Positions 3,249 to 33,919 of a stretch of 64,000 bases of DNA are shown here, in pieces. How positions within the stretch are numbered: position 1 is the first letter of the stretch; each line of letters begins with the position of its first letter. The position numbers and the translations under genes are program-made. Source of the DNA: Apiospora phragmitis (lineage: Eukaryota; Ascomycota; Sordariomycetes; Amphisphaeriales; Apiosporaceae). The stretch is taken from NCBI GenBank assembly GCA_038363925.1, contig JAQQWL010000015.1:2790001-2854000 (forward strand), in the 5' to 3' direction. The notes below the pieces were generated by a model. The model was not told the origin of the DNA. It did no database searches and was given only the letters and a program-made list of their open reading frames with translations.

Positions 3249-3250
3249 TA

Positions 3251-5126: not shown

Positions 5127-5170
5127 GGGGTCGCCGTTGCATAAGGTGACCGTAGCACCGTCAGCTGGCT
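5127..5170 (-). repeat. Right terminal inverted repeat of nested pogo element
   Basis: Ends ...GCACCGTCAGCTGGCT and is followed by TA (5171-5172). It mirrors the left repeat over about 44 bp. Confidence 0.85.
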
Positions 5171-5172
5171 TA

Positions 5173-6832: not shown

Positions 6833-6839
6833 TTATAAC

Positions 6840-7660: not shown

Positions 7661-10600
7661 ATATAAAAAGCTAAAGACCTTAAAAATAACCCCTAGTTTT
7701 AAAACCTAGACGTTAATAGAGAAGAAAGTGAGATTTAAGCCGAAAGAGAAGCGGTAAATATTAATTACGACGAGGCGAAAATTATAATCTTAATATTAAT
7801 AAAAAAGAAAAACAGTTATAAAAAATAACTTAATATTAAAGAATAACGAAACATATATATATTAGTATTAATATTAACTATAATATTATTATATTTTTTT
7901 AACCTTAATACTATTTATAATTACTTAAACTATAAAATATAACATTTAAACTATTTAAACGAAACTCTTAATTTTAAGAAAACTTAATATAATAATAATA
8001 ATTACGAATCTTATTATTTATTATCCTATTTTTTAACTTTAATATATCGCTCCTTTTTATTTAATATCTAGATCTAGGACTAGAAGTACGCCTTAGAATT
8101 TAACGACGGATTCTCCTTATTAATAGGTTAAAAACCAGCTCGGGTACGGCGAGTAATAAGCTAGTTATTAAAGTCGTTCTAATGCTTAGGTCCTTTAGAA
8201 ACGCTAACCTAGGCGGCAGAACTTTTAATACCTATTTAAATCCGCTTACGAAGAGATCGACCTAGATTAATAGGTTTTTAAGCGATTAGAAAAATACGAG
8301 GATTAAGGAAAGTATAAAGAGATATTTAAGTTATAATATTAAAGCTTAAGAAAATCTAGTTATTAATATTATATAAATTTAAATCTAGCTATAAATTAAT
8401 TTAATTAATATAAGCCGTTAAAACTTAACTGTTAATATAAAAAAAGACGCTCTTTTATTATATATAATATAGTTACTATAAATAAAGGATTTTAACTAGC
8501 GATTTAATACGTAACTATAAAAAAGGACTTTTAAAAAGGCGCTATTAATCCGGATAATTATATACTATTTATACCAAAAGGTGTTAAGATATCCGGTTCT
8601 TTAAATTATAAGCTTAGTAACGCGGTTATTTCGATAAAGTAAATATTAAAAAATCTCTCCTTAAAGTATACTAATATTAAATGCTATATAAATAAGCCGA
8701 AGGTTTTATCGATTACTTAGTATTTAAATTACAGATTATTAATAGTTAAGGTTTATAACTCCTTTACGAGATATATCCTAGCGTATATAACTTTATTAAT
8801 AATAATTATTAAATACGTTAATATATACGTAAACTAAAAATTAAACGGTATAATTAATTATAAATACTATTTTTAATGATAAAGAAGATATCGAAATACT
8901 TATTATCGCTTCTATAGTACTAAAAGTCGGCATGCTTTTATAAACTCCGCTAAAATAAAATATAAAATTAATATAACTTATATATTATTTATATATACCA
9001 CATTTAAAATTCGGAATTGAATTATTATTATAAAAACGTTTATACTTAATTACTTAAAAGAAACGAGTCTTTAAATAAAAAGATTAAAAAACGGAGCTAT
9101 AATAGTAATTAAAAAGTTAAAAGAGAGGTATAAAAGATAAATTTATAGTGAAAAAAGAGAAACCTATTAAAAAAAAGAGAAAGAAAAAGACGGCTAATAG
9201 GAATGCTAATTAAGATCGGAGGGTTAACTAGTATTCCTTCCTTATTTTTTATTTTAAGCCCCGAGACTTCTTTTTAAATATACCTTACATTTAATAGTAT
9301 ACCTTTCGTTTCTTAAAATTTAATACTAGCTAGTAATTCCTATAGATATAACTTTTTATTTATTTTCTTTTTTACTTTTAGTTTCATTAATTACTATATC
9401 GCTTAATTGATCATTTCTACTAGTTCCTTAATCTTAAAAATAAGCAAGGTATCGAAAAAAGAGTTAATTATACGGACGCAGGCCCAGCTATTACTAGAAT
9501 TATACTATATCTAATATAAGAGTTCGCCACAAACTTAGAGACAATAATTACATAAATAAGGAAAAAGTATTATATAGAGATCGCAGGCTAAACAACATAA
9601 TTCCGTAAACTAGATCTTTTTAAAGCATTAATTACCGCAGATTTCGAGGCGAACATAGACCTAAGAACCTTTATACAGCTTTAAGAAGGTATTTAAAAGG
9701 TGCTTTTTAAATTAATAAAACTTATTTAAATAAATAATAACCTATACGCGACATATATAAGATTAATAATAATAAAAACTATATAAATAAATTAAACCCG
9801 AGATTGAGCTAAAAGAAAAGAATTTAACCTAATAATTCGGATCGTTATAAATATATTTAAACTAGATATTATTATTACGAAAAGCCCGATAACTTTTACT
9901 TTAAAATATAAAAATATTAACGACCGTTTACGAGCCACGTTAAAGTATAATACTTTACCCGTAGTATTATTTGTTTTAAACTATATATTAAACTTTAAGC
10001 ACTTTTTTTTATTAATTAATTTTCCGTATATTAAAAATACGTTTTAAATAAACTCTTATATATTTAAATAAAACGCCCGCGTAACTATAGTACTTAGAAT
10101 CTTTAAAATAAAGCTGGGCGATATGTTAATAAATAGAATCTACTCGCGCTAAATCTATATAATTTTTAAATTAAATTAAAGGAATAATTAAAGTTATAGT
10201 TTTTTTATAACTTTAACTATCTTTTCGACCCTTAAGTTTAGTTATAAAACCTTCGATTTTTTTAAACAACGTATAAATTCAATTACGTTTATATTTAATA
10301 AATTTTAATAATAAATCAGCTTATATTATAATATTTTAATACCTCGATAACATCTTCGTACTCTTCGTAATTACGATCCTTTACTAACTTCTTAGTTTTA
10401 AGAGCAGCTCGTCGTTTAACGACTTTTAAAATAATAAGGCTAGTTTGTTCGAACTTAAAACTAAAGCTAAAATAATAAGGATAATAATAATCAAGGCTCC
10501 TTAATAAGCGGTGTTTTTCGATACCGGAAGGTAGTTATATTCGATAAATTAGTAATAAATAATATTAGATTTTTAACGGTATACTTTAAGTATAAAGACT

Positions 10601-11220
10601 TAAAAATAAGAAGAAGGCGCTCTTTAATACTAGAACTTATAATTTTAAACGCCGTCTTCTTTATAATTAACTAATTAATAAAAGATTATTATTAGCCTCG
10701 TTAAGGCCTTAATGATGCCGGTAAATCTTTAAATTTATAGCTATAATTCTTTTTAATTATAATAAAGATATAGTATTAAGTTTAGTTTTAAAGCGTATAT
10801 ATTAAGTATCCGATAAATTTAGAGGTTAGAACGATATTAAAGCGAGATTAAAAGTAGTAAAACGATATAATAAACCTTGATCGTTTTATTAAAAATAAAA
10901 TAAACTAAATTAAAATATCGGTAAATAAAAAGGCTTATTATTAAAGTATATAAACTCGAAAATTAAGAGACTATAAAACTAGGTAAAGTTATATATAATA
11001 ATAGAAAAAACTAATTAGGGAACATATCTTACCTTATTAGAATTTTATCTATTAAAAGCAGTGGCGACGGAATTAAGGAACGTATAACAGGGCTAAAAGA
11101 TCGCGGCCTGAGGCACGAACAGTTAATTATATAATATAGAGAAGTATAATATTAATTTCGCCATACGTTTTAATATATAATAAATTAATAAAATAAACAT
11201 ACACTTTTTAATATATACTT
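7661..11220. repeat. Anonymous RIP-degraded AT-rich repeat block
   Basis: About 3.5 kb of TpA-rich sequence with persistent CpG and no open frame longer than about 60 codons. Slightly less AT-rich patches at 8070-8300, 9170-9250 and 10500-10700 suggest remnants of coding sequence, but I could not assign any to a family. A single ancestral element cannot be delimited. Confidence 0.5.
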
Positions 11221-11480
11221 AGACGTTCGTTTCGTTACTCTTATAATATTTCCCCTTAAAAAAAAGGCCGCGTATAGGCAGCCTAATAAGGGGTTAATCC
11301 TGCGAGTGCCGACCGCAGTTTATAGGAGTACGGATTATATGTTCTCAATATTTAGACGTTCGTTTCGTTAATCCTACAATGTTTCCCCTAGAAAGAAGGC
11401 CGCGTACAGGCAGCCTAGTAAGGGGCTGACCCTACGAGTGCCGACCGCAGTCTATAGCAGTACGGATTGTGTGTTTTTAA
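11221..11480 (+). repeat. Two-copy tandem repeat, period 133 bp
   Basis: Units at 11221-11353 and 11354-11480 both start AGACGTTCGTTTCGTTA, run through a GGCCGCGTA-AGGCAGCCTA core and GTGCCGACCGCAGT, and end in GTACGGATT. They differ mostly by C/T and G/A transitions. Function unknown; this could be subterminal repeats of a transposon or a minisatellite. Confidence 0.7.
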
Positions 11481-11529
11481 TAGGCCCCTAGTTAAGCTTA
11501 TTTTTATCGTGCACTTATTTAATCTTATA

Positions 11530-11550
11530 ACGTAGCTCATCGAGCTACGT
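11530..11550. repeat. Short perfect inverted repeat
   Basis: ACGTAGCTC-ATC-GAGCTACGT: 9-bp arms around a 3-nt loop, just after the 133-bp tandem repeat. It may be subterminal structure of an element; no function is inferred. Confidence 0.4.
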
Positions 11551-11768
11551 CTTTGTTAATTCTATTACTCGTACCTCGACTAGATCCTAGTAATAAAACC
11601 GTATCGCTTTACTTATTTTATTATATAATGACCGCTCGTAATATATCTAGATATTCACGTATATATAAAATTTTAAAATTCGATAAGAGTTATTAAATAA
11701 AAATCTAAGCAGTTATTTAATATAAGAATATATTATATACTATAATAATTAATAAAAGAAAGCGACTA

Positions 11769-13839
11769 ACGTACCTTATAAGCGAGCTACGCATATAAAT
11801 AAGCTGCGCACTTTTAATTAACTTTTTTATAATTAACTTTATCTTAACTTTTCTCCTTTAATAAATATAAAACTAAAAAATAAATAAAAAAGGTTTAATT
11901 TAACGCTTTAAGCGTTTTAAAATAATTCGAAATTAAATATACGAAAAGCTATAGCTGTTAAATGGGCTTTCGTACGTGCGTATAGGTTCCGGGTTCAATC
12001 GAGGTTTAATCGTTATATTCTATTATTTATATCTACTCTGCTAGCTACGAAGGGCATCGTATGCCCCTCTTTATAAAATAGAAAAAGGGGTTCGTGCGCG
12101 CAGGTACGTAGCACCCCTTTTGGGGTAATATGGAAAACCTTAGTTCCTGCTGTTCTAATAGTAGCGATATATTATGTCCTAGAGTCGACGTTACGCAGCC
12201 GACGACGCGGAATCCGATTACGATCCGAAATCTTTATAAACTCTCGAAAGCTTTCTAATTTTAAAAAGGAATTAATTCTTTAATATATTATTAATCTAGA
12301 TACGCGATCGTTTTTTCCCTGGCTAAGTAGTATAAAAGATATAGCGAATCGATTATTTAGCTTACGTAACGCGGGACGCGTCGGCGTTAATTAGGCCTCT
12401 AATTTTATACGATAATAACTAGACCTCCGGACACGTTTTAACCGAAGAATCGATTATTAAAAAGTCTTTTATAAAGATCTTAACGCGTATCGCGCGTAGT
12501 TTAATTTTATATAGAATATAATCAATAAGTATAAAATATAAAAGTGGGATATATATAATTTTAACGAAACCGAGTTTTTTATAAATTAAATCTCGTTCGA
12601 AATAATCGTAACTACTATTAATTAACGCAGAAAGCTTAGGGTAATATAATAAAAGAACCGGGAATAAGTTATAATTATTTAAGGCGTCGGATTAAACGGT
12701 TACGCCATCCCTCTATATATTATCTTTACCGGGAAAACGCACCTCTTTTCCTGGTATAAAAACAGCCTATTACCGAAGGATTAAGTGATGGTAATTATTA
12801 AAAATAGCTAAACCACGAATAAAAGAGGCGAGGACTAGATTCGATACTTTAATTAATATACCAGGTTTTATACGAAGGGTCGTTATCGCCTCTTAGTCTT
12901 AAACGGCTACGAAAGCTATTACTTAATAGTTTTCGAGCTTTATTACAAAAAGAACTCGATTATTATACTCTATATACTTTTTTACTTATTATATAAGCTT
13001 TAACCTTTTAATATCAGCTGTTTTCGTATATTAAAAAAGGCGTACAAAGAAGAAATTAAAGGTTTTATACGGGCGTATATTACTTATATCTTTAAAAAGG
13101 ACTTCTTACTAACGTTTTTAAAAGCGTTCTAAGCGATTTTTACCGTTTTAAATATATAAAAAAGCTTCCGAAAAATAGGATTTATCTCGTATAATCCGGA
13201 ATATATTATTTTATAATTAGATATAAAGCTACGCATTTTAATATTTCCGGGAACGTTTTCCGGCCTACTTATTCTTTAAGAATTAAAAACTTTAAATAAT
13301 TTAATTAAAGCCTAGTTTTAAATTAAATATATTCGAAACCGTATTATATAATATTAAAATAACTTTTCGACGTTTATTTTAATTAATTTTAATTAAATTA
13401 TAAAGGTTATAACGTAAATTATATACCGAGTTACTCTTTTAAAAAGTAAGAACGCGATACTTCGCAAAGTAAATAAGATATTTAGCCGGCGCCGCCGTAC
13501 GAAAAAAAAACGGCTATAGGATGGAGAATTACTTTATATATAAGCTAAAAAAAACTTATAGTTTTAAAAAGATATTAATAAATAATTATAAGACGAATCG
13601 CGTCGGAGGAGTAGTTATATAAGGACGTTTAGCACACGCTTATAGCGTTATAGAATCTACGGAGAGCCCGGGAATAATACGCGTACTTATTAGAATAATA
13701 TAGAAACCTTTAAAAATAATTATTATTAATATATTTAATTAATTTTAAGCGTTATAATCGAGTTAATTTATAACTTATAAGGCTTAATAATAAAAAGTGC
13801 GCAGCTCGTTTATATACGTTGCTCGCTTATAGGGTACGT
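11769..13839 (+). mobile_element. pogo/Fot1-type transposon copy A, carrying a nested solo LTR
   Basis: Terminal inverted repeats start ACGTACCTTATAAGCGAGC on the left, mirrored at the right end (...GCTCGCTTATAGGGTACGT), with TA at 11767-11768 and 13840-13841. The plus strand encodes a decayed CENP-B-HTH/DDE_1 transposase from about 12290 to 13680. Readable blocks include the HTH region near 12300-12400, the first DDE block near 12650-12730 (SDGYAIPPYII-like), FSWYKNSLLPKD near 12755, LILDGH/Y-type second Asp near 12890-12920, and FIRAYITHI near 13060. The length is 2071 bp; removing the nested LTR plus one duplicated target leaves about 1.86 kb, the usual size of this family. Many RIP-type stops. 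Confidence 0.8.
11956..12160 (-). repeat. Solo LTR inserted in pogo copy A, with 5-bp target duplication
   Basis: Reverse-complement copy of the 208-bp LTR at 5976-6183, with ends TGTTAAA... and ...AATA on the plus strand. The flanks ATAGC (11951-11955) and GTAGC (12161-12165) form a 5-bp target-site duplication differing by one RIP-type transition. No second LTR is nearby, so it is a solo LTR. It lies between the left TIR and the transposase frame. Confidence 0.75.
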
Positions 13840-13841
13840 TA

Positions 13842-14165
13842 TTTGAATTATTTCCGCTAGTATTTTAAAGTTAAAAATATAATAACGTTTTAAATATATT
13901 TATAGTTTTAATTTAAATAAAGTTTAAAGCTTTATTTAATTTATAACGTAAGCTTTCGTTTTAAAAACTAAGGATAATAATTAAAATAAAAATATAAAGA
14001 TTTTATTAAATAGTTTATTAATAATATATTACGAAAGATACGAATATAATAAAAAGTAAAGCTCCGGAATTAAAATATATAGCCTTATAATAAAAGCTTT
14101 AATAAAACTAACTCGGCTATATTTAAATTATAAATATCTACTTACTTTATATTTTTATACCGGTT
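13842..14165. repeat. AT-rich RIPed right margin of block 1
   Basis: AT-rich sequence with no readable gene. Base composition changes sharply at about 14165, where the gene island begins. Confidence 0.5.
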
Positions 14166-17587: not shown

Positions 17588-18261
17588 TCAGTGCCTTCGT
17601 CGTTCCTGGTTCAAAGGATCAAAGCCGGAGAATGTGCTGTGGTTGAACTGAAAGCCGTCTTTGTTGTTGTTGAACTGTTCCCCGAGGCCTGTGTTGACGC
17701 TCTGAGGGCCCGAGCCGCAGTTGTAGATACCTGAAGCTGAGCCGTCATCCTGCAGTGATGGTGAGATTGCCGACACCTGTGTCATGACTTCGGCCAACGT
17801 GCGGAGATGTGCTTCTGGTGCCACTTTCATCCCCTCATCCATCTTTAACAAGGCTTTCACATCTCGAAGTATACCTTCCATCAAAGCTTCCACGCCTCCC
17901 CCTTTGCCTAGCTAGCCCACGCACGGCATCGCGGTAGCGCTCTATTCTCTGCGCGGCTACAGACGGCACAACCTTCCCATAGATACTCTCCAAAATACCA
18001 GCTTTTGCCTTGCACTGGTCCATGCTATCCTTCACCTCTGCCCAGGTACTGTCATCCTCCCTCTGCTCTATCTGTGCTAGGGCACAAGTGAGTGCTTCAC
18101 AAACAGGCGGTAGGTGCTTGAGGATTTCTGTGAAAGCTGCGGGGAGTGCTTCAGCATCACTAGGATTGCTGTAGTCATTCCCGATGTTCTTAAGGGCCTA
18201 TTTCACGCCTCTGACCGAGTTACGAACATGGGTAGCTTCTAGGCCCAGTATTTTGAGACGG
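17588..18261 (-). pseudogene. SesA-like cell-death effector with C-terminal sigma amyloid motif, broken
   Basis: Minus-strand helical protein resembling the SesA domain found N-terminal on fungal NACHT/P-loop proteins and as stand-alone effectors. Readable blocks: LKILGLEATHVRNSVRGVK, then LPAAFTEILKHLPPVCEAL, DSMDQCKAKAGILESIYGKV, RIERYRDAVRG, EALMEGILRDVKALL, LRTLAEVMTQVSAISPSL. The last 40 residues hold a sigma-type motif: two G-x-G-x-Q pseudo-repeats followed by NNN and G-x-QFN. Sigma motifs are known as prion-forming tags linking an NLR to its effector. Two lesions are seen: a TAG at 18200-18198 where CAG is expected, and a CTAG duplication (17908-17915) that shifts the frame just before EALMEG. 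The N-terminal exon is not identifiable. It is divergent to the sigma-PNP gene. Confidence 0.75.
17908..17915. other. 4-bp CTAG duplication causing a frameshift
   Basis: The sequence CTAGCTAG sits exactly where the SesA-like frame changes. Removing one CTAG restores continuous reading from RYRDAVRG into GVEALMEG. TA-n-n-TA is the kind of footprint left by TA-inserting DNA transposons; replication slippage is an alternative. Confidence 0.55.
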
Positions 18262-18757
18262 CTAGCAAATCAAGACGAGTGGGGTTGATTAGGACGGTTA
18301 TTAGGCTGTAGTAGTTAGCTTGTTAATATATCTACACAATTCGTTAGATTCATGTATCGGGAATAATATTCACTTACTAAATTATAGCGGAAAAGGCGAT
18401 TATATATAGGTCCTAGTAGTAAAGAAGTTATAAAAACATTTCTATGTTCTAACTTAAATTGCCTCGCTATAAATAGAGCGGGCAAGGAGCAGGCTGCGTC
18501 AAGTGTAAGCTGACACCGCTACACTGACTGACCATCTTGCCACCACAAGGAAAGAGCCAATCACCACACGACATATATTATCTACTTATTAAAATAACTA
18601 GTTTTACCAGTCGCTGAACATAGCCTGTTAGCTATTAGTATTATATCGTGTATATAGTCGTTAGGATATCCTCAAAGCACGCCCGCTCTATAACCCAGGC
18701 CTTATAACGCCTGTGCATAAACTTAATCATCGCGAGCAGATAGGCTTATCAACAGTC
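18262..18757. promoter_or_regulatory. Divergent intergenic region between SesA-like and sigma-PNP genes
   Basis: About 0.5 kb separates the two divergently read sigma genes. It is more AT-rich at 18290-18470 and 18560-18700, suggesting RIP has spread into it. It should contain both promoters and the first exon of the SesA-like gene, but none can be delimited. Confidence 0.4.
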
Positions 18758-20032
18758 ATGTCTTCAAATCTCTCGATCACCAACTCTGGCTCTGGTGCTC
18801 AGAACGTCGCTGCGGGCAGTGGTGCCCAGTACAACAACAATGGCTGCGGCACGCAATTCAACAGCAGCAGCATCCATAGTAGTAAGGGTTACAAAATCCA
18901 AGTTGTATTTTTTAATTGTAATTGGCTCATCCAAAACAGACTTTCTCCACGGACTACAGGCCGACAAGACCGAGACGCTTATCCCGAGCCACGGCCGACC
19001 CTCCCGTCGCGAAGGTTTCGAAATCGCCATCGTCTGCGCCTTGCCACTAGAATATGATGCCGCATCCCTACTGTTTGATCAATTCTGGGATGATGAAGAG
19101 CAGCAATATGGTCGCGCGCTCGGGGATAGAAACACGTATACGACCGGTCGTATCGGGCGGTACGATGTAGTGCTAGCATTGCTCCCCAACATGGGTACAG
19201 CGGCCGCGGCTGGGGCCGCGGCCAGTATGCGGTCGAGCTTTCCTGGCCTGAAGCTCACCTTCCTGGTGGGGTCTGTGGTGGTGTCCCGGTCACGGGCGCT
19301 AACGAGGCGCTGCTCGGCGATGTGGTGATCAGCAAGACCCTTCAGCATGGCTTGGGTAAGCAATACCCGAGTGCATTTGTCGCGAAAGACACCATCGACG
19401 ACAACCTTGGCCGGCCAAGCAAGGACATCCGCAGTCTGATTGCTAGCTTCGAGACGGAAATGGGAAGACATCGTGTACAGAAGAAGGCTGGCGAATATCT
19501 AAAAGTGCTACAAGGTGCCGCAGTGCGCCAGCGTCGGCGATGCAATTACCAGTATCCTGGTGTGGCCAAAGACAAGCTGTTCGCGGCAGCCTACCGACAT
19601 AACCATCGCGCACCGCAGACGTGCGGCGTCTGTAACGGGGAGTTGGACAGCTTTCGCGAGGAAGCTGCTGTGGCTTCCTGCGGCGAACTCCATTGCGACG
19701 AGAACCAGTTAGTGTCTAGGAAGCGCCTAGAGGCGAAGCGAAACCTTGCGCCGGGCGATATGCAGTGCCCTGAAATTCTTGTCGGCCGCATGGCATCCAG
19801 CGATACGGTGATGAAATCTGGCGAACACCGCGACCGCATTGCTGCCCAGTACGATGTAACTGCCTTCGAGATGGAAGGTGCCGGCGCTTGGGATGAAGTG
19901 CCATGTATCATTATTAAAGGAATCTGTGACTACGCTGACAGCCATAAGAACAAGACATGGCAGCCGTTTGCCGCAGCAACGGCAGCGTCGGTGATGAAGG
20001 CGGTTCTGGGGCGATATGCCCACACTGACTAG
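18758..20032 (+). pseudogene. Sigma-motif protein fused to a stand-alone PNP_UDP (nucleoside phosphorylase-like) domain, one frameshift
   Basis: Exon 1 (18758-18881) encodes about 41 residues that are nearly all sigma motif (G-x-G-x-Q twice, NNN, G-x-QFN). A 58-bp GTAAGG...ACAG intron (18882-18939) joins it in phase to exon 2, which encodes a complete PNP_UDP domain. It starts REGFEIAIVCALPLEYDA, then YDVVLALLPNMGTAAAA, KLTFLVG, and GGVPVTGANEALLGDVVISK. It ends FEMEGAGAWDEVP, KGICDYADSHKNKTWQPF. The frame loses one base at 19265-19272 (after FLVG); with it restored the product is 405 aa. The stop follows directly after the domain, so no NACHT or NB-ARC is attached. In fungal NLRs PNP_UDP is normally an N-terminal effector domain; related domains in bacterial defence cleave ATP (established for that superfamily). 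Here an amyloid tag sits on the enzyme. Whether the indel is biological is uncertain. Confidence 0.8.
18882..18939 (+). other. Intron separating sigma motif from PNP_UDP domain
   Basis: 58 bp, GTAAGG donor, ACAG acceptor. The phase-1 junction puts exon 1 and exon 2 in one frame, strong support for the fusion. Confidence 0.7.
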
Positions 20033-21028
20033 CCCTAGCGTTAACTAGCGTTTCCACCCTTTTTGCTAGGCTTCTTTTGTTGTCAGCATAGAATAGCAGA
20101 CGGACGATTCGGACTTTCTTTATTTCATTGCGGCCTGTTACTTGTGTTACAAGATATTTCGCGAGAGTCTTCCCTGTGCTGGTCGACTGTACAAGTAAAA
20201 CCTCCTAGGCATTGCTGCCGAAGCATCAGTCCTGCGTGCGCGTGCCTACTGCGGTGGACTACTTACCCCGCGACCTAAGACCCCGTCGACATGTGGCAGT
20301 CTTCCACACTCCAGAGAGGCACAATAGCTGTGTAGTGTTTTCGGCTCGCCAGGCCGGCCAATAGATAGTACGCATGTACACCGGCCGCAACTCGACAGAC
20401 GCGTCAAATCTATGATATACTAGGTGCAAGTACCTCAGATCGAAGTAGAGTTGGCTGCAGTTTAACTATGGAATTAACTGGCCGCATTGAAGGCCAGGAG
20501 AGGAGATACTCCACGTTCCTGGAAGCAAAACAGCAAAAGCGCACTGCCTTGCTGCCAAAGGCTACGGACCAATAGCTCCATGTATAGACGCCGATATGAA
20601 ACGAAATTTGGACGAAGTAGTTGAGCGGATTTGGTGGAACGGCTTCAGTGAGTGTACAGCAGCCCCATCAATTTACAGAGAGGTCTTGATAAGTGAAGAA
20701 GCGGCCAATGTAAGAAGGAGGCATCAACACGGTGTAAATTTGCGTACCACCCGCTGTGTACCAAGGGCCGTCGCCAAGTCCACGCCAGGTCAGCTGTCTT
20801 CTGCCATCCAGCCTGGCCACCACGCGCGGGGTGAAGAGGCTGGGCCAACCCCATGGTCAGCCTGCTGATCCAAATGATCTCCATGGACACTTATCGTGTA
20901 CCTATTCTCGTCCCTCTGACTGTTGGCATCAACCATACAGCCCGGATCGCGATACCATCTGGCTCCAAACCATCGCCCCAACACCGATCCTGCGACGCGC
21001 CCGCGTCGCGTCAGCGAATCCTCTGCCC
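20033..21028. other. Intergenic region between sigma-PNP and sigma-NACHT genes
   Basis: About 1 kb, normal GC, only short frames without domain-like sequence. It presumably holds the 3' end of the former and the promoter of the latter. The region just before the ATG at 21029 has no obvious TATA. Confidence 0.4.
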
Positions 21029-23360
21029 ATGTCTCCGAACACCACTAACAATCATGGTCCCGGGCCCCAAAACACAGCAACGGGCAGTGGGGAGCAGAAC
21101 AATAATGACCGCAACGGCTGGCAGTTCAATCACAGTACCATCTATGGATGTAAGTCGTCCAAATTCCCGGACGCAGCACTAGCTGTCGATCACTAACACG
21201 GGCAGACCCATTTCACAACCCGCAGAACAAGCTTCCGGACGGAAAAGAGGGTAAGAATTGCCTTATTCACATATCTATTTGCGTTAGGCTATTTAATGCT
21301 AATAACACAGCCTGTCTTCGCTCTCTCGTATTCCATGCTATCCACGCTCGACGCGACAATATCGCTTCTGCCCACCCAGACACGTGCGACTGGCTGTTCC
21401 GCACCTCCGAGTTCCAGGAGTGGAGAAATCCTGCCTCCTTCCCAACCCACAATGGAGTGCTCTGGATCAAGGGCAAGCCGGGCGCGGGCAAGTCGACGCT
21501 AATGAAGCATGTATACCTCCGCTACCAAAACGACTTCTTCCGCGACCACCTCATCGTCGCCTTCTTCTTTAATGCCCGAGGCGAGACGCTCGAGAAGACG
21601 CCCCTCGGCATGTTGCGGTCGATCGTATACCAGCTGCTCCAAAACGACGATGCGCTGTACGAACGCTTCGTCCCTTCCTTCCGCGAGAAGCAGAGGACAA
21701 GCTGGGAAGGGGACTGGCAGTGGCGTCAATCAGAGCTCAAAGAGTTTATCCGCTCGGCTGTCAATCAGCCACTGTCGCGGCCCCTCTTATTTCTCGTCGA
21801 CGCGCTAGACGAATGCGACGAGTCCGAGGTCCGCGAGGTGGTCGAGTTTCTCGAAACGCTGAGCGTCGAGGCCTCTCGGGACGACGTTCCGCTACAGGTC
21901 TGCCTCTCGAGTCGCCATTACCCAAGCATCGGAATGCAGAAAGTCCTCGAATTAGCGGTAGAAAAAAGCCCCGATCACAAAAATGACATCGCCAAATATA
22001 TCGGGAAGAAGCTTCGAATACGAGAGGACGAGATAGAGGCCGCGATTAAGAGGCGGGCCGACGGGGTTTTCTTATGGGTTGTTATTGTCGTATCCCTTCT
22101 TAACAAGGCGTACGACGAAGGGCGGGTCGAAGCGATACGAACGACCTTAAAAGAAGTGCCGAGCAGCCTAGAAGAAATATTCGACACGATTCTGGGCAAG
22201 GACGTTACCGATGCGAGCGAAACAATCCTAGTACTCCAATGGGTCCTCCTTAGCCAGCGACCGCTAAAGCCTCAGGAGCTGTTCGCTGCGGTAGTCAAAA
22301 CAGCTCTTCCCACCATCGAGCTAGTTCAGCGTCGGATCACCACGGCATCAAAGGGCTTGGCTGAGGTACGGATAGGCGAGGCCGACTCGGTACAGTTTAT
22401 CCACCTCTCCGTTAGCGACTTTCTATTTAGACAAAAGAGGCTGCAGATACTGGACCCGACGCTAGGGCCCGAGCCTCTCACGGCCAGTCACGGGCGACTT
22501 TGGGCGCGCTGCTGGTCTAGTCTCCAGCAGGTGGACATGGTATCGACAGATAGGCAGCCGATAGAAAGCTTGATAAGCAAGGACCCTTTTCTAGGCAAAA
22601 AAAAACATCTTTAACCATGCAGAAAGGGCTCTGTCTCAGGACGTAATGGTCGGAAAGAACAGAGAGCCAGAGTACAGGGGAGGTTCCCCCCATTCCTCAG
22701 ACATATCCCCGACAACCGGTATCCAACAGTGGCTACGAAAGTCAAACGGCTGGTTCCAACGGTGGAAAGAGTTTGTTATCGCTACTAATTCGGAAGAAGA
22801 GTTTAAGCTAGAAAGGGGGAGTAAATATAGGACTCGTTTACACTTTAGCAATAAATGGGCTTCCGAAGCTCCTAGGGGCTATGGCAGAAAGGTGTAACGT
22901 CCACGCGCAAGGCGGCAAGTACGGCAATGCGCTACAGGCCGCTTCATATCAAGGAGAGGAAGAGGTCGTTCGGCTGCTCCTCGAGAAGGGCGCCGACGTC
23001 CACGCGCAAGGCGGCTACTTCGGCAATACGCTACAGGCCGCTTCATTCAAAGGAAGCTAAGAGGTCGTTCGGCTGCTCCTCGAAAAAGGCGCCGACGTCC
23101 ACGCGCAAGGCGGCCACTTCGGCAATGCGCTACAGGCTGCGATAAAAAAGGGTAGGGACGAGACCGCGAGGCTCTTTCGTCAGAATGGGGCTGTTCTACG
23201 TGAATTTGAAGAAACGAACATTGTGCTCAATCCGCGCCAAGGGACGGTGCTTCAGGCTACTGAGGCATCTACCTCTCTATATCGAACATCGCTTTGGTGG
23301 GGCTTGTTTTTTCTGTTTACTAGTTGGTTAGTGCTGCGCTTTTTTAGATTAGACGAGTAG
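21029..23360 (+). pseudogene. Sigma-NACHT-ankyrin STAND/NLR receptor, broken by frameshifts and a stop
   Basis: Exons 21029-21149, 21206-21250 and 21311 onward join in phase (GTAAGT/GGCAG and GTAAGA/ACAG introns). Exon 1 is a sigma motif. Exons 2-3 give the conserved linker (PFHNPQNKLPDGKEACLRSL) leading to the NACHT domain, with Walker A GKPGAGKST (residues about 110-118), Walker B LLFLVDALDECDE (about 215-227) and the CLSSRHYP sensor. After the NACHT come three nearly identical 99-bp ankyrin repeats (22896, 22995, 23094), then a C-terminal hydrophobic segment (SLWWGLFFLFTSWLVLRFF). Lesions: an extra A in A9 (22597-22605), an extra base before 22857, and TAA at 23058-23060 in repeat 2. The C-terminal membrane-like segment is unusual for an NLR. 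Sensing by ankyrins, NACHT oligomerisation and sigma templating are family-based inferences. Confidence 0.85.
22896..23192 (+). repeat. Three near-identical 99-bp ankyrin repeats
   Basis: Each unit starts (G/A)ACGTCCACGCGCAAGGCGG and encodes DVHAQGG-x-FGNALQAAS followed by EEVVRLLLEKGA. Starts at 22896, 22995 and 23094 give an exact 33-codon period. Repeat 3 diverges after QAA. Such high internal identity is typical of rapidly evolving fungal NLR repeats. Confidence 0.85.
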
Positions 23361-23700: not shown

Positions 23701-24694
23701 AGTTCATCTAGTTCTTCAAGTCGGATCACATCACGAGTATCGAATCGGACAGCGGCCTAGTGGTTCCGGGTCGTGAATAAGATAAACCCCTCTCGGCTAA
23801 AAAGTAGGTATAACAGTAACTGGTCGTCTGTGAGTAAAATCATATCATCGGCGTTATCGATAATAAGGAGCCACGGTCCCGCCTCGTCTCGACCTAGATC
23901 TGCCCTCATAAGCGCCTTGACGTCCGTTTTATCGTCTTTAATGCCCTTAACCTCTAGGGCTCGGCCGATCTCTCGGTAGGGGTTCTCGAACATGGTCATG
24001 TTCACCGCCGGCACCTAGAAGACGAAGTAATCGAGATGCGCCTCGCGAACACGGTAGGCCGCTTCGATCGCGACCTGCGTCTTTCCGATGCCGCCGAGAC
24101 CCTCGATAACAGTCCGCTGGCACGCGTTTAGCTGAGCAGTCGGAGGTAACCTTTTTAAAAGCTGGCTCAGGATGCCTTCCCGGCCTATAAAGTTTTTATT
24201 CCGGCTAAACGAGATAAGAAAACGTGGCTTTCGACGAGCTAAGAAGTATTAAATTCTTTATTAATTATAAATTTCTATATCTTATATATTTAGCTTATAG
24301 TTCTCAGGTCTATTTAAATCGCCCGGTACTAGCGGTAAAATAGTAAACAGTAGCTCTTTAATATAGGCTGCCGCTATTAAAGCTGCGTACGGCTCCCACA
24401 TTAGCCCGGCGGCCTCCATCTTGAAGCCTAGGACCCCTCCTAGCTCTTAGCTATACCTGTCGCGCGTCGGCCCGTCCTTTATTACTTGGTTGCTGGACGC
24501 GATCGTGCTAAACAAAAGCACCTGGTCGGCCGTCGCACGGATCTCCCTGTCGAGTACATCGTCCGTGTGGCACTTTGCGCAAATCGCCCCGGCCACATGC
24601 GCCGACGATATATCGTAAAGGGTATCCTGGCCAGGGCCCGGCGACGCGAAGTTCGGCCGATATATAAGCTTAAGTAGATGCGTAAGGACTTCGG
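23700..24694 (-). pseudogene. PNP_UDP/NB-ARC NLR remnant, truncated at its 5' end by a pogo element
   Basis: The minus strand first reads the C-terminal half of a PNP_UDP domain (FASPGPGQDTLYDISSAHV, TIASSNQVIKDGPTRDRYS, ELGGVLGFKMEAAGLM). It then jumps directly to WEPYAALIAAAYIKELL, so the conserved 'RGICDYADSHKNK' segment is deleted. An AT-rich linker with SFSRNKNFIGREGIL leads to an NB-ARC domain with P-loop EGLGGIGKTQVAIEAAYRV and kinase-2-like [16 protein letters not shown] at 24017-24015 replaces Trp before [20 protein letters not shown]. Upstream sequence ends at a pogo-like terminal repeat near 24694, so the first half of the PNP domain is missing. TPR-type repeats expected at the C terminus are not readable. 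Confidence 0.75.
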
Positions 24695-26662
24695 TTTTAC
24701 CACGGTTTAAATAACCACCTTTAAAAACTTCATCTAATAAAGTATAAATTATTTCCGCTATAACGCATTTAATATCTTAAAATTAATCGTAATCCTTATC
24801 TCTAGATACTTCTATATTATTCTAATAAGTACGAGCATTATATCCGGGCTCTCCGTAAATTTTATAGCGCTATATACGCGTCTTAAACGTCCTCTTATAA
24901 CTACTCTTTTAACGCGATTCGTTTTATAACTATTTATTAATATCTTTTTAAAATTATAAGTCTTCTTTAATTTATATACGAAATAATCCTCTATCTTATA
25001 GCCGTTTTTTTTTCGTACGGCGGCGCCGGTTAAGTATCTTATTCGCCTCTCGTAGTGCGGTTACCTCACCTTTTAATAAAGCGAGCCGGTATATAACCTG
25101 CGTTATACCTTTTATAATTTAGTTAAGCCTAGTTAAAATTAATATCGGAGAGTTATTTTAATATTACGCGATTCGATTTTTAACGTACTCGGTTTAAAAT
25201 TAAGCTTTAATTAAGTTATTTAAAGTTTTTAATTCTTAAGATATAAATAAGCCGGAAAAGGTCGCCGGAGGTGTCGACGTACGTAGTTTTATATTTAACT
25301 ATAAAATAATATATTCCAGATTATATAATATAAGTCCTACCCTTTAGAAACCTCTTAAAATATTTAAAACGGTGAAAGTAACTTAGAACACTTTTAAAAA
25401 CGCAGGTAAAAAGTCTTCCTTTAAAATGTGAGTAATATACGCCCGTATAAAACGCTCGATTTCTTTCTCGTATAACCTTTTTAACATATAAAAACAGCCG
25501 ATATTAAAAACTTAGAACTTATATAATAAATAAAGAAATATATAAAGTATAATAATCGAGTCCTCTTTATAATAAAGCTCGAAAGTTATTAAATAATAAC
25601 TCTTATAGCCGTTTAAGACTAATAAGCGATAAATACTTTTCGTACGAAACTTCGTATATTTATTAAAGTATTAAATTTAATCCTCGCTTCTTTTATTCGT
25701 AGTTTAGCCGTTTTTAATAACTGCGATTACTTAATCCTTTAATAATAAGCTATTTTTATACTAGGAAAAGAGGTACGTTTTCCCGGTAAATATAATATAC
25801 GAAGGGATATCGTAACCGTACGATCCGACGCCTTAAATAATTATAACCTATTCTTAGTTCTTTTACTAAACTGCCCTAGGCCTCTCGTATTAATCGGAGG
25901 TTATAACGATTATTTCAGACGAGATTTAACTTATAAAAAAGCCGGTCTCGTCGAAGTTATAGATATCCTCCTTTTAAATCTTATATTTATTAATTATATT
26001 TCGTACGAGGGTAAATTACGCGTAATACGCGTTGGTGTTATAGTGCGTATAAACTAACCACTGAGCCATAAAGCAAAAGCTTTAGAAATGACTCTTCGGG
26101 TTATTTCTGTCTAATTCTACGCCTTAAGTGCTACCCCGCAGGGGACTAACCCGCCGATCGTAACAGTCGGGATCTTTATAAAAAACTCTTTAATAATCGA
26201 TTCTTTAATTAAAACGCGTCCGGAAGTCTAGTTATTATTATACGAAGCTAAAGGCTTAATTAACGCCGACGCGTCTTGCGTCGCGTTAAAAGAATAATTA
26301 GTTCGCTATATCTTTAATACTACTTATCCGGGGAAGAAACGATCGCGAATTTAGTTCGATTATATACAGAATTATTATATTTTCTTCGAAAATAATAAGT
26401 TTTTACGTTAATAATCGTATATTTTATCGTAAAATACCGCCGCGATATCGAAGATATAAAATTATATAAGAGATATTATAAACTTATATTATAAATTAAA
26501 AACTCAATTTAAAATTATTTTAAAGCGTTAATTATATATCGCTTTCTTTTTAATTACTAACTATAATAAAATAGTAAAAAAGAGATAAAATAAACTTAGT
26601 TATTAAAAATTACGAGAAAACAATTAATTAAATCGTGTGATTAATTAAACCGTGGGGTACGT
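24694..26662 (-). mobile_element. pogo/Fot1-type transposon copy C
   Basis: Reverse-complement relative of copies A and B. Transposase homology spans about 24850-26400 (minus). The right end is ...CCGTGGGGTACGT (to 26662) followed by TA. The left end has an imperfect mirror (ACCACGGTTTAAATAACCAC near 24698-24717), so the left boundary is approximate. The element abuts the NLR remnant and probably inserted into its 5' region. Heavy RIP. Confidence 0.7.
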
Positions 26663-26689
26663 TATATTTATACTTAAACTTAATAATAC

Positions 26690-27890
26690 CTCTCGTTATA
26701 AAAAGGCCCCCGCTATTATCGTAAATACCTCGTAATGAGACCTTATTATAAAAATAAATAGCGATAATAATAACGACGGCCTTACCCGGTAAACGTTAAC
26801 TAAACGAATTAAAAAACTCGAATAAAAAAGTACTAATTATTAATACTATTACGCTAAGCTCGAAAAAAACGTAACGAGCTCTTAATTAAAAACACCTTAA
26901 GATAAATACCCTAGCACCTTTTAACGAGATAAGTAAAAACCTCCGCAGATTCTTTATCTAAGCTAAAGCTTATTAATAGTTATATAAAAAAACGTTCTAA
27001 AACGCTACTTAATAAGTTACTTATATTACCTCGTTCTTTAAAAATAAAACACTCGCTTAATTCGAACTTTACTTAAGCGAACTAATAAAAAACGACTAAT
27101 AAGTTAAGCTATACCGCATGAAAATATAACGAATTTTCGAAAACTACGATAATTTCGAATAAACCTTTAAATTACTCTTTTAAAATCTCGACGAAAAACA
27201 ATGAGCGGAACGAGAACTAAAAACTCTTAAATAAAAAAAGTTTAGCCGCTTCCTACACCGCCGAAATCTAACGTATTATAATTTAATTAAATTATAACGA
27301 AACTATAAAAATTATAATATATTATTAAAGATTAAAAAAAACATTAAAAATAAACTTAGCCGGCTTAATACCTTTAATAATTTCCTTTCGTATATAAAGC
27401 TTACTATTAAAATCGATACCCGTATATACGAATAACGCCGCGAGAAGCAAGGCGGATAATAACGGTAAACTAGTCGAATCTAGGCTAACACTAGATAACT
27501 ACGTTAATATTATAACATAATGCTAAGGAATATTACGGCGTATACTTATTATAATAAACTTATAAACTTCGACGCTCCTAACTATATTAAGTACGATAAT
27601 AAATAACGCATTACTTATTATAACTATTAAAAACAAGGGTATTACGCTCGAAAATATCGAACCTCGAAAAAAGATTTCCGGAAAAGTCTCGAATAGATAA
27701 CATATTAATATTACTAAAGTAAAGATCGCCTTTATAATAGCTATTAAAGGTAGCAGCGCTATAATAAAACATAATAGCTTACTTTAAATAGCTTATTATA
27801 ATAACGAGTACGCTTTATACTTAATAAATAAAGAAGGAACCGGATAGTTTTTTAAAGCCTTTAAAAGTAAAAGTAAATATAGTCGAAACT
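26690..27890 (+). mobile_element. RIP-degraded Ty3/gypsy gag fragment
   Basis: The plus-strand frame gives a gag core: FFIQAKAY, then VTYITSFFKNKTLAxFEPYLSE, then ENYDNFE...AERELKTLKQKK, then SRLNTFNNFLSYIKLTIKIDTRIYE-RREKQGG, and a zinc-knuckle-like YYNYQKQGYYARK near 27615-27660 in which Cys codons look converted to Tyr. Homologous minus-strand gag is present at about 38700-39290. The fragment is cut on the right by the LTR element at 27895. Confidence 0.65.
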
Positions 27891-27894
27891 TTAT

Positions 27895-28106
27895 TATTAG
27901 AACAGCAGGAACTAAGGTTTTCTATATTACTTTAAAAAAAGTGCTACGTACCTACGCGTACGAACCCCTTTTTAGTTTTATTAAGAGGGGTATATAATGC
28001 CCCTCGTAGCTCGTATTAAAAATAGATATAAATAATAAAATATAGTAATATAACCTCGATTAAACCCGGAATTTATTTATATATATATACGAAAGCTTAT
28101 TTAATA
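27895..28106 (+). repeat. 5' LTR
   Basis: Starts TATTAGAACAGCAGGAACTA (RIPed TG start) and ends TTTAATA. 212 bp. Confidence 0.7.
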
Positions 28107-30460
28107 TTAATTAATAATTATATAAAGTAATTATAAATTAATAATAATAAAAAGACGGTTTTACGCCCTTATTAATATAAGGGCGACCGTATTAAAGAGC
28201 CCCGAGAATTTCCGCTCGTTAAAGATTCGGAGGAAGAGCCGAACTAAATTAACCGTACGAGGAGAAACCCTTTTTCTAAGTATATATTATAAAGAGGAGA
28301 CTAGGTTCCGAATTATACGCGAAATTAACTAAGCTATATATAATTATATACTTAAATAACTTTATTATACGATTTATAAAGCGATAACCCTTATTAATAT
28401 AAAGTTAATTACGGTCTATTAAACGAGACTAAGCTCGAATATATTAAACTTAAACCGACCGATAACCCTAGACCTCGAACTATTCACGTACGAAAAAATA
28501 GCCTAAAATACCGAGATTTTTTTAATAGTTTAAAAAACGAATATTAACCTCGATTTTTAAAAGCTCGAACCTTTAATAATACTTTTTAAAAAAATATCAC
28601 TCGAATAATTTATACCGTAATTTATATAATACTTCTTAAAATATTATATATTAAAAATAAAAAACAACTCTTTTTAAAAATCGTTTATTATAAAGTTTAA
28701 CAAATAAACCGAGTATTAATACGGTTAAATTAATCGTATATTTTAAAAAAGCTCTATAATTACCTTAAAATAAACGAAGTTAATATCTCGACGATCGGAT
28801 CCTTTAAAGCTAAGCTCGCAAGCCTAGTACTACCGGTCGGCCTTATATACCAACAGGACCGACCGGTAGAACCAGCTCCAGAAACCCGGAAGGAGAATAT
28901 CCCACATCCTTCCCGAGAACAGGCATTCGAACAGCTAACGCTAAAGCGAAAGACACTAGACCCCCGTACGGAGTAATAATCCACGGAACTACGGGAGAAC
29001 CCGAAGGCAAGCCCGGCGTCTAACCCTAAAATCTCAGGTACTCGAGCGTCGTAAAAAATCGTCCTTTTCTTTCTCCGACTCCGGTACCACCGGATTAAAC
29101 CGTATAATTATCGGGCTTAGCGTACTATACGTAATACTATATACCTCCGTTTCGAATTATTTATAATAATAAAACCGACTAGGTTAAAATAGTTATTTTT
29201 TCAAAGATATAAAAGCGAGAAAAGAACTATACCGGCAAGCCGTATAATATCTTTACTAATAAAATACGAATATTTATTAAGATATATAAATAATTAAATA
29301 TATTAAAAAATTAAATATTACGTAATCTTTCCGGATATTCATTTCAGCCGTGCGAAAGAATTCTGTTTAAATTATATCAAACTTAAAAAGAGATAAGACG
29401 AGATATATTACTTTTTCGAATCGCACTTTAATATAACGATAAATTATAAATAATATTTTACGAACTCTATAAAGACTTCGTTCGAATAATTAAAAATAAA
29501 AAATACTAAGAAATAATTAATTAAAGTTTTTAAAATATTATTAAATAAGCTTTAATTAATATAACGAGCCCTCGAAACAGGGTTTTAAAGAGAGATTACC
29601 CTTTATACGTTAGTGATATAAGTATATCGAGGAGTCCTCGAACTCGAGCTAGCCTTTATTTATTAAAAACCGACGTGCGAAGCTTTATTCTCGGACCTTC
29701 GAGTATCGCTAAATACCGTAATAAATGAGAAACTATTAAAATAATATTTAATAAATAAGTCTCGACTAAGTAAAATTTTTAATATATATATAATCGATAA
29801 ACGGTTTATAAATAACCGTATAAAAAGAAATCGACTAACTTAGGATAATAAGTTATCGTAAATTAACCGACCACCTAGATAAGATAAGAACCCACGACTT
29901 ATAAACACGTCTCGACTTAGATTATTATACGAGAATAAGCGGTCTTAATTAAGAACGTGCCGTATTTATTATAAGTAAAGCTATTAATTAATAAATTATA
30001 AAGTTAAAAAAAACTAGCGATTTATTAATTAAATATAATATATATATATATAGTCGCGAAAGTATATATATATAAATATAGTTTATTTTTATATAAGGCT
30101 TCGATAAATTAATAATAAAATGTTATAAAAGAGAAGAATTTAAACAGTATAAAATATTTACGTATAAAAGAATATTTATTTATAAAACTACTTTTACTAA
30201 TCGCTAATAAAGTATAACCTATTTAAATATATAATAAAGCCCCCGCCATTATTATTACTTTCGAACGATTAAAATAATTAGCTAAAGCGGACTTATCACT
30301 TAATTAAATTAACGTTAAGAAGTTATAATATGACCCGTACGGCTTAAGCAGGTACCGAATACCGGATTAGCGCAACCCATTCGTACGAAACCTTTATAAA
30401 AAAAGATTAGTTTTAAAAAAGAAATTAGCGAAGTTTATTATTAAAAATAAAAACTAGTAA

Positions 30461-30667
30461 TATTAAAATAACTAAAACTAAGGCTGTTTATACTACTTTA
30501 AAAGAGGTGCTACGTATTTACGCGTACGAACCCTTTCTTTACTTTATAAAGAAAGGTATATAATACCCCTCGTAACTAGTAGAGTAAATAAATATAAATA
30601 ATAGAATATAATGATATAGTATTAATTAAACCCTTATTTATACGTACGTACGAATTTTTTTTTAATA
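30461..30667 (+). repeat. 3' LTR
   Basis: Starts TATTAAAATAACTAAAACTA and ends TTTAATA. 207 bp, more heavily RIPed than the 5' copy. Confidence 0.65.
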
Positions 30668-32759: not shown

Positions 32760-32930
32760 ATAATTATAAAGTATATAAATAATTTAAAATCGCGATCGTT
32801 TCTTCCTCGTATAAGTAGCGTTAAAAATATGACGAATCGATTACTTAGCTAACGCGACGCGGGACTATAACGAACGTTATGTAGGTTTTAAAAAACCCTA
32901 GTAAGACGTACTAGTGTTTATGTTAATAAT
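32760..32930 (+). mobile_element. pogo transposase N-terminal fragment (copy D)
   Basis: 32785-32870 (GCGATCGTTTCTTCCTCGTA...ATTACTTAGCTAACGCGACG) matches the HTH-coding start of copies A (about 12300-12370) and B (about 39615-39690). The remainder of the transposase is absent, so it is a truncated copy. Confidence 0.6.
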
Positions 32931-33644
32931 ACGAAAGAGTATCTAAACGTGCGATAAAAGTAACGCTTCTATCGATATAATATATAGTAGCCGGGTCGTA
33001 ATAAAGTAATAAGGGGTCGAGTAAAAGTATTTATATAATAGAGTTATTAAAACTATTTACTTTATTAATAGGTTAAAATTAATACTTAAATTAATTATTA
33101 AAATAAAGAGTATTTATATAAAATATATAAGGAATATCCGTCGTTATATATCTAATCCTTCCTCTTTAATTACGTCTACTTAATAATCTTTATTAATTAT
33201 AATTAGTATTATTTATTATTTATTAATTTTAATTAAATTATTTAGTATTACTTTACTAAGCTATGTCTAGCTTTATTATTACGTAAGTTGTTTTTAACTA
33301 TTTATATAATCTTATTTATATTTATTTATCTATAACTAAATAATCTCGTCGTGCTATTATCGTGGTATTAGTTATTATAGTATTATAGCGGTATAGTAAG
33401 GCTTATTATTATAGGTGGGTTCGTTAGTGCTAACCGGTAGGGTAGGTTTTAATACTAGTTTTTATAAGCGCCTCGAGATATAATATATCCGTGCTAAAAG
33501 TAAGTCTAGCTATATAATTAAGTTAAGTCGTAATATTATCCTCCCTATTTTATTTATTTTATTTTTAAAGTAATTAATCGTTATAAATACTAGGTTTTAT
33601 TATTTTTATTAAGAATTTTTATAAATTTTCCTTCTTTTTTACTT
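32931..33644. repeat. Anonymous AT-rich RIPed block
   Basis: No readable gene. 33400-33560 is a GC-richer stretch that could be part of an LTR, but I could not find its partner. Confidence 0.35.
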
Positions 33645-33764
33645 TTTATTTATAATATACGCTCATTATATTTAATCGTATTAAGAAATCGCGATTTAAT
33701 TCTATTTATTTATAATATACGCTTATTATATTTAATCGTATTAAAAAATCGCGATTTAAATTTA
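33645..33764 (+). repeat. Two-copy tandem repeat, period 60 bp
   Basis: TTTATAATATACGCTCATTA... repeats at exactly 60-bp spacing (33645 and 33705), with each copy running through AATCGTATTAAGAAATCGCG. Differences are transitions. Confidence 0.65.
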
Positions 33765-33919
33765 TTTATTTTTTTATTATTTATTATATAGATTTAGTTA
33801 AGGCTCTTAATAAGTTTAATTTTAATATTATACTTTATAATTATTATTTTTTAAAAGGGTAGTCGTATATTATAATAAAAAGTATTAATAAGTATAAAAA
33901 GTATACTTATATTAATTAT

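What the first reader, a model, noticed from the sequence alone, without database searches (positions are those of the whole stretch)
17588..23360. A three-gene sigma-motif amyloid signalling cluster (SesA-like, sigma-PNP, sigma-NACHT-ankyrin)
Three adjacent genes each carry one 33-residue motif of the same type: G-x-G-x-Q ... G-x-G-x-Q-x-NN ... G-x-QFN. It is C-terminal on the SesA-like protein and N-terminal on the other two. Established: sigma motifs link fungal NLRs to effectors by amyloid templating, and receptor and effector genes are usually adjacent. Here one receptor would share its tag with two different candidate effectors. The shared-signal reading is inference.
Basis: partly seen in the sequence, partly recalled or inferred. 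Interest (0 to 1): 0.9.

Follow-up and report, generated by a model that had tools for sequence, protein, structure and literature searches.

The report
Decayed sigma-amyloid fungal immune cluster
Three neighbouring fungal genes carry the same short prion-like tag that links an immune receptor to cell-death proteins; the arrangement is largely known and the copies here look damaged, but relatives suggest that one of the linked enzymes carries its tag at the unexpected end, in a small exon that gene annotation can miss.

Summary
A SesA-like gene, a nucleoside-phosphorylase (PNP) gene and a NACHT-ankyrin receptor gene each carry one threefold G-x-G-x-Q sigma motif: C-terminal on SesA, N-terminal on the other two. 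Each scores 20-25 bits with Pfam NACHT_sigma, below its 27.6-bit cut-off; 0 of 10 shuffled peptides match it. The genome is most likely Apiospora phragmitis; a peptide search found sigma only at this locus. All three genes look interrupted here; their motifs do not. The kind is known: het-eN/sesA/sesB triads and phosphorylase/STAND sigma pairs were described in 2012 (PMC3321046, passages). What goes beyond the passages I read is the PNP. Its motif sits N-terminally, in its own first exon in this window. Of 63 organism-named PNP homologues, 36 show it and 4 more seem to hide it out of frame; 0 of 120 listed have it C-terminally. On 21 contigs such a PNP shares a contig with a homologue of this receptor. 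The surveys I saw look at effector C-termini. Fibres and cross-seeding are untested. Verdict: new variant of a known kind; this copy is probably a relic.

The parts
17588..18260 (-). SesA-like gene with C-terminal sigma motif; 5' end uncertain; interrupted (in-frame TAG at 18195-18197 and a frameshift at a tandem CTAG near 17911)
   Evidence: Pfam SesA 60.5 bits; tblastn with Apiospora hydei PG997_002671 (P0241), 81% and 74% identity in two frames; bases
17624..17728 (-). sigma motif of the SesA-like protein (IYNCGSGPQ...QFNHSTFSG)
   Evidence: NACHT_sigma 20.2 bits; shuffles
18758..20032 (+). sigma-PNP gene; interrupted by one frameshift between about 19265 and 19271, in a G run
   Evidence: A. 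marii PG985_016371 (P0001), 91% identical over 85% of the longer piece; change of frame also seen with P0049 and P0060
18776..18877 (+). sigma motif of the PNP protein, in exon 1
   Evidence: NACHT_sigma 25.4 bits; conserved columns in 36 relatives plus the window
18879..18939 (+). inferred intron right after the PNP sigma motif (phase 1; donor at 18879 or 18882)
   Evidence: reading continues as FLHGLQADKTET, matching LLQGLQADKTET in P0001
21029..23360 (+). sigma-NACHT-ankyrin receptor gene; interrupted (frameshift at an A-rich stretch near 22600, frameshift in a G run near 22815, in-frame TAA at 23058-23060)
   Evidence: NPHP3_N 123.5 bits, NACHT 33.4 bits, Ank; A. marii PG985_016370 (P0122) matches in three frames
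21050..21148 (+). sigma motif of the receptor, in exon 1
   Evidence: NACHT_sigma 24.0 bits; 39 of 40 residues of exon 1 identical to A. marii PG985_016370 (my count)
21150..21205 (+). inferred intron 1 of the receptor (phase 1), right after the sigma motif
   Evidence: splice gives IYGYPF, matching VYGYPF in P0124 (Microdochium)
21251..21310 (+). inferred intron 2 of the receptor
   Evidence: splice gives KEACLRSL, matching KEACLRTL in P0124
21379..21915 (+). NPHP3_N/NACHT nucleotide-binding region with P-loop GKPGAGKST
22812..23250 (+). ankyrin repeats, interrupted by the TAA at 23058-23060

Best explanation
This is a damaged copy of a sigma-tagged receptor/effector cluster in Apiospora phragmitis. 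In intact relatives the most likely working order is: a ligand is sensed by the ankyrin part; the NACHT receptor oligomerises; its N-terminal sigma tags come together and fold as an amyloid seed; the seed templates the sigma tag of SesA (C-terminal) and of the PNP (N-terminal); SesA, a HeLo-like-related helical protein, disrupts membranes, and the PNP, a nucleosidase-fold enzyme, attacks nucleotides, perhaps ATP. The result would be regulated cell death or arrest in self/non-self conflict or defence. Shown here: motifs, domains, adjacency, recurrent shared contigs of PNP and receptor in other fungi, a separate tag exon with an inferred phase-1 intron in both PNP and receptor of this window, and lesions in all three genes. 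Inferred: amyloid formation, templating and its direction, SesA and PNP activities, the trigger. In this strain the pathway is probably dead.
For: Motif tests. Domains. A. hydei has an uninterrupted SesA-sigma protein. 21 contig lengths occur in both the PNP top 120 and the receptor top 120, three with consecutive tags, one of 8.7 kb. 26 of 120 listed receptor homologues show a sigma motif in frame. A Trichoderma gene model (P0237) runs from SesA-sigma into sigma-NACHT. Tags of PNP and receptor match better on the same contig than with partners shuffled: 0 of 50,000 for 14 pairs (also 0 for 13 without a near-copy), 98 of 50,000 for 8 Xylariaceae pairs. The glycines and glutamines of the three 9-residue repeats are the most conserved columns (G11, G20, Q24 in 37 of 37 rows; G13 in 32, Q15, G22, G31, Q33 in 35). 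Published precedents.
Against: NACHT_sigma scores stay under Pfam's cut-off for all three motifs. Same-contig matching is not significant inside Xylaria alone (5,315 of 50,000), and the own partner ranks first on both sides in only 4 of 14 pairs. In this window the PNP and receptor tags are not the closest pair. 27 of 63 named PNP homologues show no in-frame sigma motif, and 94 of 120 receptor homologues show none. No amyloid or activity data for these proteins. The SesA query found only two proteins, both Apiospora; the Trichoderma fusion is the one further case seen. No relative with all three genes together was seen.
Confidence: 0.72

Rival explanations
1. Only SesA is wired to this receptor; the PNP tag belongs to a different signalling line (another receptor in the ancestor) and its neighbourhood is historical.
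For: SesA-receptor tag score 108, PNP-receptor 90, SesA-PNP 85; the PNP tag scores 111 with the C. spaethianum receptor.
Against: PNP and receptor homologues share contigs in 21 cases, three with consecutive tags; A. marii keeps both side by side. In the 14-pair test tags match by contig.
Confidence: 0.13
2. The PNP is not a downstream effector but a second nucleator or sensor: its oligomer presents N-terminal tags as a receptor does and seeds SesA, which is the only executioner.
For: Tag position and the layout of tag exon plus phase-1 intron are receptor-like in this window; in Podospora, fusions with the PUASM motif ahead of GFP or RFP formed no foci (PMC9815663, passages), so N-terminal tags may need forced clustering. 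PUASM is another motif than sigma.
Against: Nothing shows seeding by PNP; PNP enzymes with C-terminal amyloid tags are treated as effectors in the literature; the 120 listed PNP homologues carry no Pfam domain but PNP_UDP_1 in the precomputed column. That these PNPs are oligomers is recalled, not tested.
Confidence: 0.1
3. The interruptions are partly assembly errors and the cluster works in this strain.
For: Two of six lesions (the PNP one and the second in the receptor gene) are shifts inside G runs, a usual type of long-read error (recalled).
Against: Two nonsense codons, a tandem CTAG and an A-rich stretch that differs from the relative over several residues are not of that type; the deposited A. 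phragmitis SesA model PG994_014571 lacks the damaged stretches and starts with antisense of the PNP exon.
Confidence: 0.12
4. Low-complexity G/N/Q-rich tails that resemble each other by composition only.
For: Composition is strongly biased; Pfam cut-off not reached.
Against: 0 of 20,000 shuffles for each pair, 0 of 10 shuffles in Pfam, repeat phase conserved over 36 PNP relatives, only three places in the genome by peptide search.
Confidence: 0.02

Closest known systems
s locus of Nectria haematococca: het-eN (NACHT-ankyrin), sesA, sesB (PMC3321046, passages; PMC5485727, passages)
   Same: A NACHT receptor with ankyrin repeats and N-terminal sigma motif beside two proteins with the same motif, one of them SesA; also an overlooked 5' intron in the receptor gene.
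   Different: Second protein is a PNP, not the SesB lipase; its motif is N-terminal; genes interrupted here.
Sigma-tagged UDP-phosphorylase/STAND pairs (Aspergillus oryzae, A. terreus, Magnaporthe; PMC3321046, passages)
   Same: Phosphorylase-domain protein adjacent to a STAND gene, both with a sigma-type extension.
   Different: There the phosphorylase carries it C-terminally (text and Figure 10 legend); here N-terminally.
NAD + sesA + STAND locus of Fusarium (PMC3321046, passages)
   Same: Two different tagged proteins, one SesA, with one STAND gene.
   Different: Another domain (NAD) in place of PNP.
PNP_UDP effectors tagged by PUASM or HRAM/NLR12, and the survey statement that sigma goes with pore-forming and enzymatic effectors (PMC9815663, passages)
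   Same: PNP_UDP enzyme linked to an NLR by an amyloid motif.
   Different: Other motifs, C-terminal. Sister PNPs in our search have C-terminal tails that look HRAM-like (9 of 120; label recalled).

Membership tests
Sigma-motif NLR/effector cluster | Motif made of three G-x-G-x-Q type repeats shared by neighbouring genes | tested here: met
Sigma-motif NLR/effector cluster | Pfam NACHT_sigma over curated cut-off | tested here: not met
   20.2, 25.4, 24.0 bits against 27.6; A. hydei SesA P0241 26.9
Sigma-motif NLR/effector cluster | Motif N-terminal on a NACHT or NB-ARC receptor with repeats | tested here: met
Sigma-motif NLR/effector cluster | Motif C-terminal on the effector | tested here: not met
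   met for SesA; not met for PNP: N-terminal in 38 of 120 listed homologues, C-terminal in 0 of 120
Sigma-motif NLR/effector cluster | Tags more alike within a cluster than between clusters | tested here: inconclusive
   14 pairs 0 of 50,000; 8 Xylariaceae 98; 6 Xylaria 5,315; in the window SesA-receptor yes, PNP-receptor no
Sigma-motif NLR/effector cluster | Amyloid formation and cross-seeding | not testable with these tools
   needs peptides
Sigma-motif NLR/effector cluster | Intact reading frames | tested here: not met
   six interruptions over three genes
SesA domain (PF17107) | Pfam score over cut-off | tested here: met
   60.5 bits against 26.3
PNP_UDP_1 (PF01048) | Pfam score over cut-off | tested here: inconclusive
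   broken window pieces: 19.3 and no match, against 25.1; A. marii P0001 48.4
PNP_UDP_1 (PF01048) | MTA/SAH nucleosidase-like fold | tested here: met
   model of P0001 (not of the window gene), pLDDT 76.1; best PDB match 4x24_A, E 5.8e-13, TM 0.42 by query and 0.68 by target, rmsd 12.6; residues 1-57 with the tag under pLDDT 50
Immune ATP nucleosidase | ATP cleavage | not testable with these tools
   only that reviews report PNP_UDP domains as such (passages)

The most novel reading that the evidence does not exclude
A widespread class of PNP proteins in Sordariomycetes carries the sigma tag at the receptor end: a small first exon closed by a phase-1 intron, the same layout as in the partner receptor. 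The tag exon would be a shuffled cassette, and an oligomeric PNP could act as a second nucleator of SesA instead of a plain downstream effector.
Probability: 0.12. Interest if true: 0.75.

Novelty: new variant of a known kind. Interest (0 to 1): 0.48.

Why it matters
If N-terminal sigma exons on PNP enzymes are common, motif surveys that look at effector C-termini and rely on gene models undercount amyloid signalling partners: here 36 of 63 named PNP homologues show the motif and 4 more seem to hold it only out of frame. It also makes a question testable: whether an amyloid tag at the N-terminus of an enzyme can be templated, since PUASM-first GFP fusions formed no foci in Podospora (PMC9815663, passages).

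Tried and rejected
Pfam NACHT_sigma against the whole own genome gave no match although the window holds three motifs, so that search is blind here. A peptide query found the three places and no other up to E 10, but it may miss divergent tags. A DNA pattern for G-x-G-x-Q-x-N-N gave 16 places, the reversed control also 16, so it adds nothing beyond the three known ones.

AlphaFold on SesA with two sequences gave pLDDT 40.3: helical, not used for a fold search. A whole-motif shifted-frame score did not separate hidden tags from controls; a local score did. I changed the score after seeing the first result.

RIP as the cause of all lesions: SesA, PNP and NACHT segments have negative composite indices (-0.53, -0.62, -0.07), the linker-ankyrin part +0.43, and the AT-rich flanks +1.10 and +1.16. 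RIP may explain the ankyrin stop, not the rest.

Other sigma PNP loci in this genome: the nearest PNP paralogue (C11, 52%) is followed by frames with a P-loop and repeats, and no sigma motif was seen by pattern.

Sequence search of solved structures: PNP gave MTA/SAH nucleosidases at E 1e-3 to 1e-2; SesA gave short matches to pentatricopeptide repeat proteins over about 22 residues, not followed. So no DNA of fungal relatives was read.
Full report
What is there. Between 17588 and 23360 lie three genes: SesA-like on the minus strand, then a PNP gene and a NACHT-ankyrin gene on the plus strand. Each has one motif of three nine-residue repeats of the type G-x-G-x-Q. The motif is C-terminal on SesA and N-terminal on the other two. 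Pattern scans of the window hit these three places and no fourth; a peptide search of the whole 52.67 Mb genome, up to E 10, finds the same three and no other, though divergent tags could escape it. Pfam NACHT_sigma hits all three below its cut-off (20.2, 25.4, 24.0 of 27.6 bits), and 0 of 10 shuffled peptides. Pairwise similarity exceeds all 20,000 shuffles in each of the three pairs. So the motif is real, although the curated threshold is not met.

Whose genome. The SesA search returned two proteins; one, Apiospora phragmitis PG994_014571 (P0242), is 98.7% and 100% identical to the window over its two SesA pieces. Its first 31 residues are 100% identical to the antisense of the PNP sigma exon, so the deposited gene model is a chimera. 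The window is therefore taken as A. phragmitis.

State of the genes. SesA: in-frame TAG at 18195-18197 and a frameshift at a tandem CTAG near 17911. PNP: one frameshift in a G run near 19265-19271. Receptor: frameshift at an A-rich stretch near 22600, frameshift in a G run near 22815, in-frame TAA at 23058-23060. Two of the six are of a kind that assembly error can make. Uninterrupted gene models exist in relatives: A. marii PNP PG985_016371 and receptor PG985_016370, A. hydei SesA PG997_002671. RIP indices are negative over SesA, PNP and NACHT and strongly positive in the AT-rich flanks: the cluster sits on a GC-balanced island between RIP-like blocks.

Tags against bodies (tag counts are mine). 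Receptor exon 1: 39 of 40 residues as in A. marii, the later part 75% over 92% of the query. PNP exon 1: 36 of 40, the later part 91%. SesA tag against A. hydei: 24 of 35; the stretch before the frameshift is 81%, the stretch after it, which includes the tag, 74%. So the receptor tag is kept more strictly than its body; the SesA tag is not.

The PNP branch. The PNP search found 3,792 proteins under E 0.001 and listed the best 120. With a profile from ten motifs (best of 242 shuffled proteins 1.5 bits; threshold 10), 36 of 63 organism-named PNPs and 2 of 57 others have the motif, always N-terminal; 0 of 120 have it C-terminal. The low number among the others fits a first exon lost by gene callers, but I could not read their DNA. 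Of the 27 named ones without it, 4 (P0038, P0050, P0055, P0066, all Trichoderma) have N-termini compatible with DNA that spells the motif in another frame: scores 93-98 against a maximum of 46.3 in 240 shuffled controls, the other 23 at most 33.4; the window exon as positive control gives 110-116. One of seven others tested (P0013) scores 67.4. That makes 40 of 63. A tree of 63 named PNPs and the window piece puts the sigma bearers mostly together (7 changes of the in-frame label on 64 rows, shuffled mean 20.8), apart from a branch that holds the six named PNPs with HRAM-like C-terminal tails; the deepest forks are weak (SH-aLRT 77).

Linkage. Three pairs have consecutive tags (PG985_016370/016371, PG991_013436/013437, NUW58_g699/g700); one shared contig is 8.7 kb and one 13.9 kb. 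Chance sharing on megabase contigs is possible and was not modelled. A Trichoderma model (P0237) contains SesA, a sigma motif, a second sigma motif and NACHT in one protein, which I read as two neighbouring genes fused by annotation. I saw no relative with all three genes at one place.

Do tags match by cluster? Of the 21 pairs, 14 have the motif on both proteins; 7 were dropped because a gene model lacks it. Mean same-contig score 121.2 against 94.9 after shuffling partners, 0 of 50,000; without one near-copy also 0; 8 Xylariaceae 98 of 50,000; 6 Xylaria 5,315 of 50,000, not significant. So tags track lineages, and pair-level specificity is not shown. Among three loci from A. marii assemblies the own receptor is the best match of each PNP, and the own PNP is best for two of three receptors.

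Exon layout. In the window the PNP motif ends at an inferred phase-1 intron and so does the receptor motif; both splices give residues seen in relatives. SesA shows no intron before its motif. Whether this holds in other species needs their DNA.

Mechanism. From established work on fungal amyloid signalling: receptor oligomers seed effector tags. SesA overlaps with HeLo-like domains (PMC4986451, passages). Reviews state that PNP_UDP was described in bacteria as an immune ATP nucleosidase and that the family hydrolyses ATP (PMC10197012 and PMC12881547, passages). The P0001 model matches MTA/SAH nucleosidases, with residues 1-57 at low confidence, and the E-M-E and D371 columns are invariant in 37 homologues; their catalytic role is recalled.

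Known or new. PMC3321046 (passages) describes het-eN/sesA/sesB, NAD plus sesA plus STAND, and sigma-tagged UDP-phosphorylase/STAND pairs with a C-terminal tag. PMC9815663 (passages) searched NLR N-termini against effector C-termini; PMC12261475 (passages) calls its effector-side set FASS_C. I found no mention of an N-terminal sigma motif on a PNP in the listings of searches or in these passages; supplements were not open to me and most subscription papers are not held. Hence: new variant of a known kind, carried here by a probable relic.

Noticed in passing
window 23757-24776, minus strand: Decayed PNP-like (24348-24503) and AAA/NB-ARC-like pieces convergent to the receptor gene, in RIP-like sequence: probably the remains of an all-in-one PNP-NLR next to the split system.
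   Followed up: partly
L053 (G000 C11:533000-541000), 3452-7767: Nearest PNP paralogue (52%) lies upstream of long frames with a P-loop and repeats: probably an all-in-one PNP receptor, no sigma motif seen.
   Followed up: partly
P0242 (PG994_014571): Deposited A. phragmitis protein starts with antisense of the PNP sigma exon and lacks the damaged stretches of SesA: a chimeric gene model.
   Followed up: yes
P0237 (Trichoderma sp. CBMAI-0711): One gene model spans SesA, two sigma motifs and NACHT-ankyrin: probably two neighbouring genes fused by annotation.
   Followed up: partly
P0054, P0088, P0097, P0098, P0100, P0108, P0109, P0111, P0112: Nine PNP homologues carry a C-terminal tail with F-G-N/D ... 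Q-G-D that looks HRAM-like (label recalled) and lack the N-terminal sigma motif: possible tag swap on one enzyme family.
   Followed up: partly
window 55212-56321, plus strand: Long Ser-Asn dipeptide run inside an open frame that looks like an oxidoreductase (recalled).
   Followed up: no
window 1-14000 and 25100-42000: AT-rich blocks (GC 0.28 and 0.26) with strong RIP indices flank the cluster island.
   Followed up: partly
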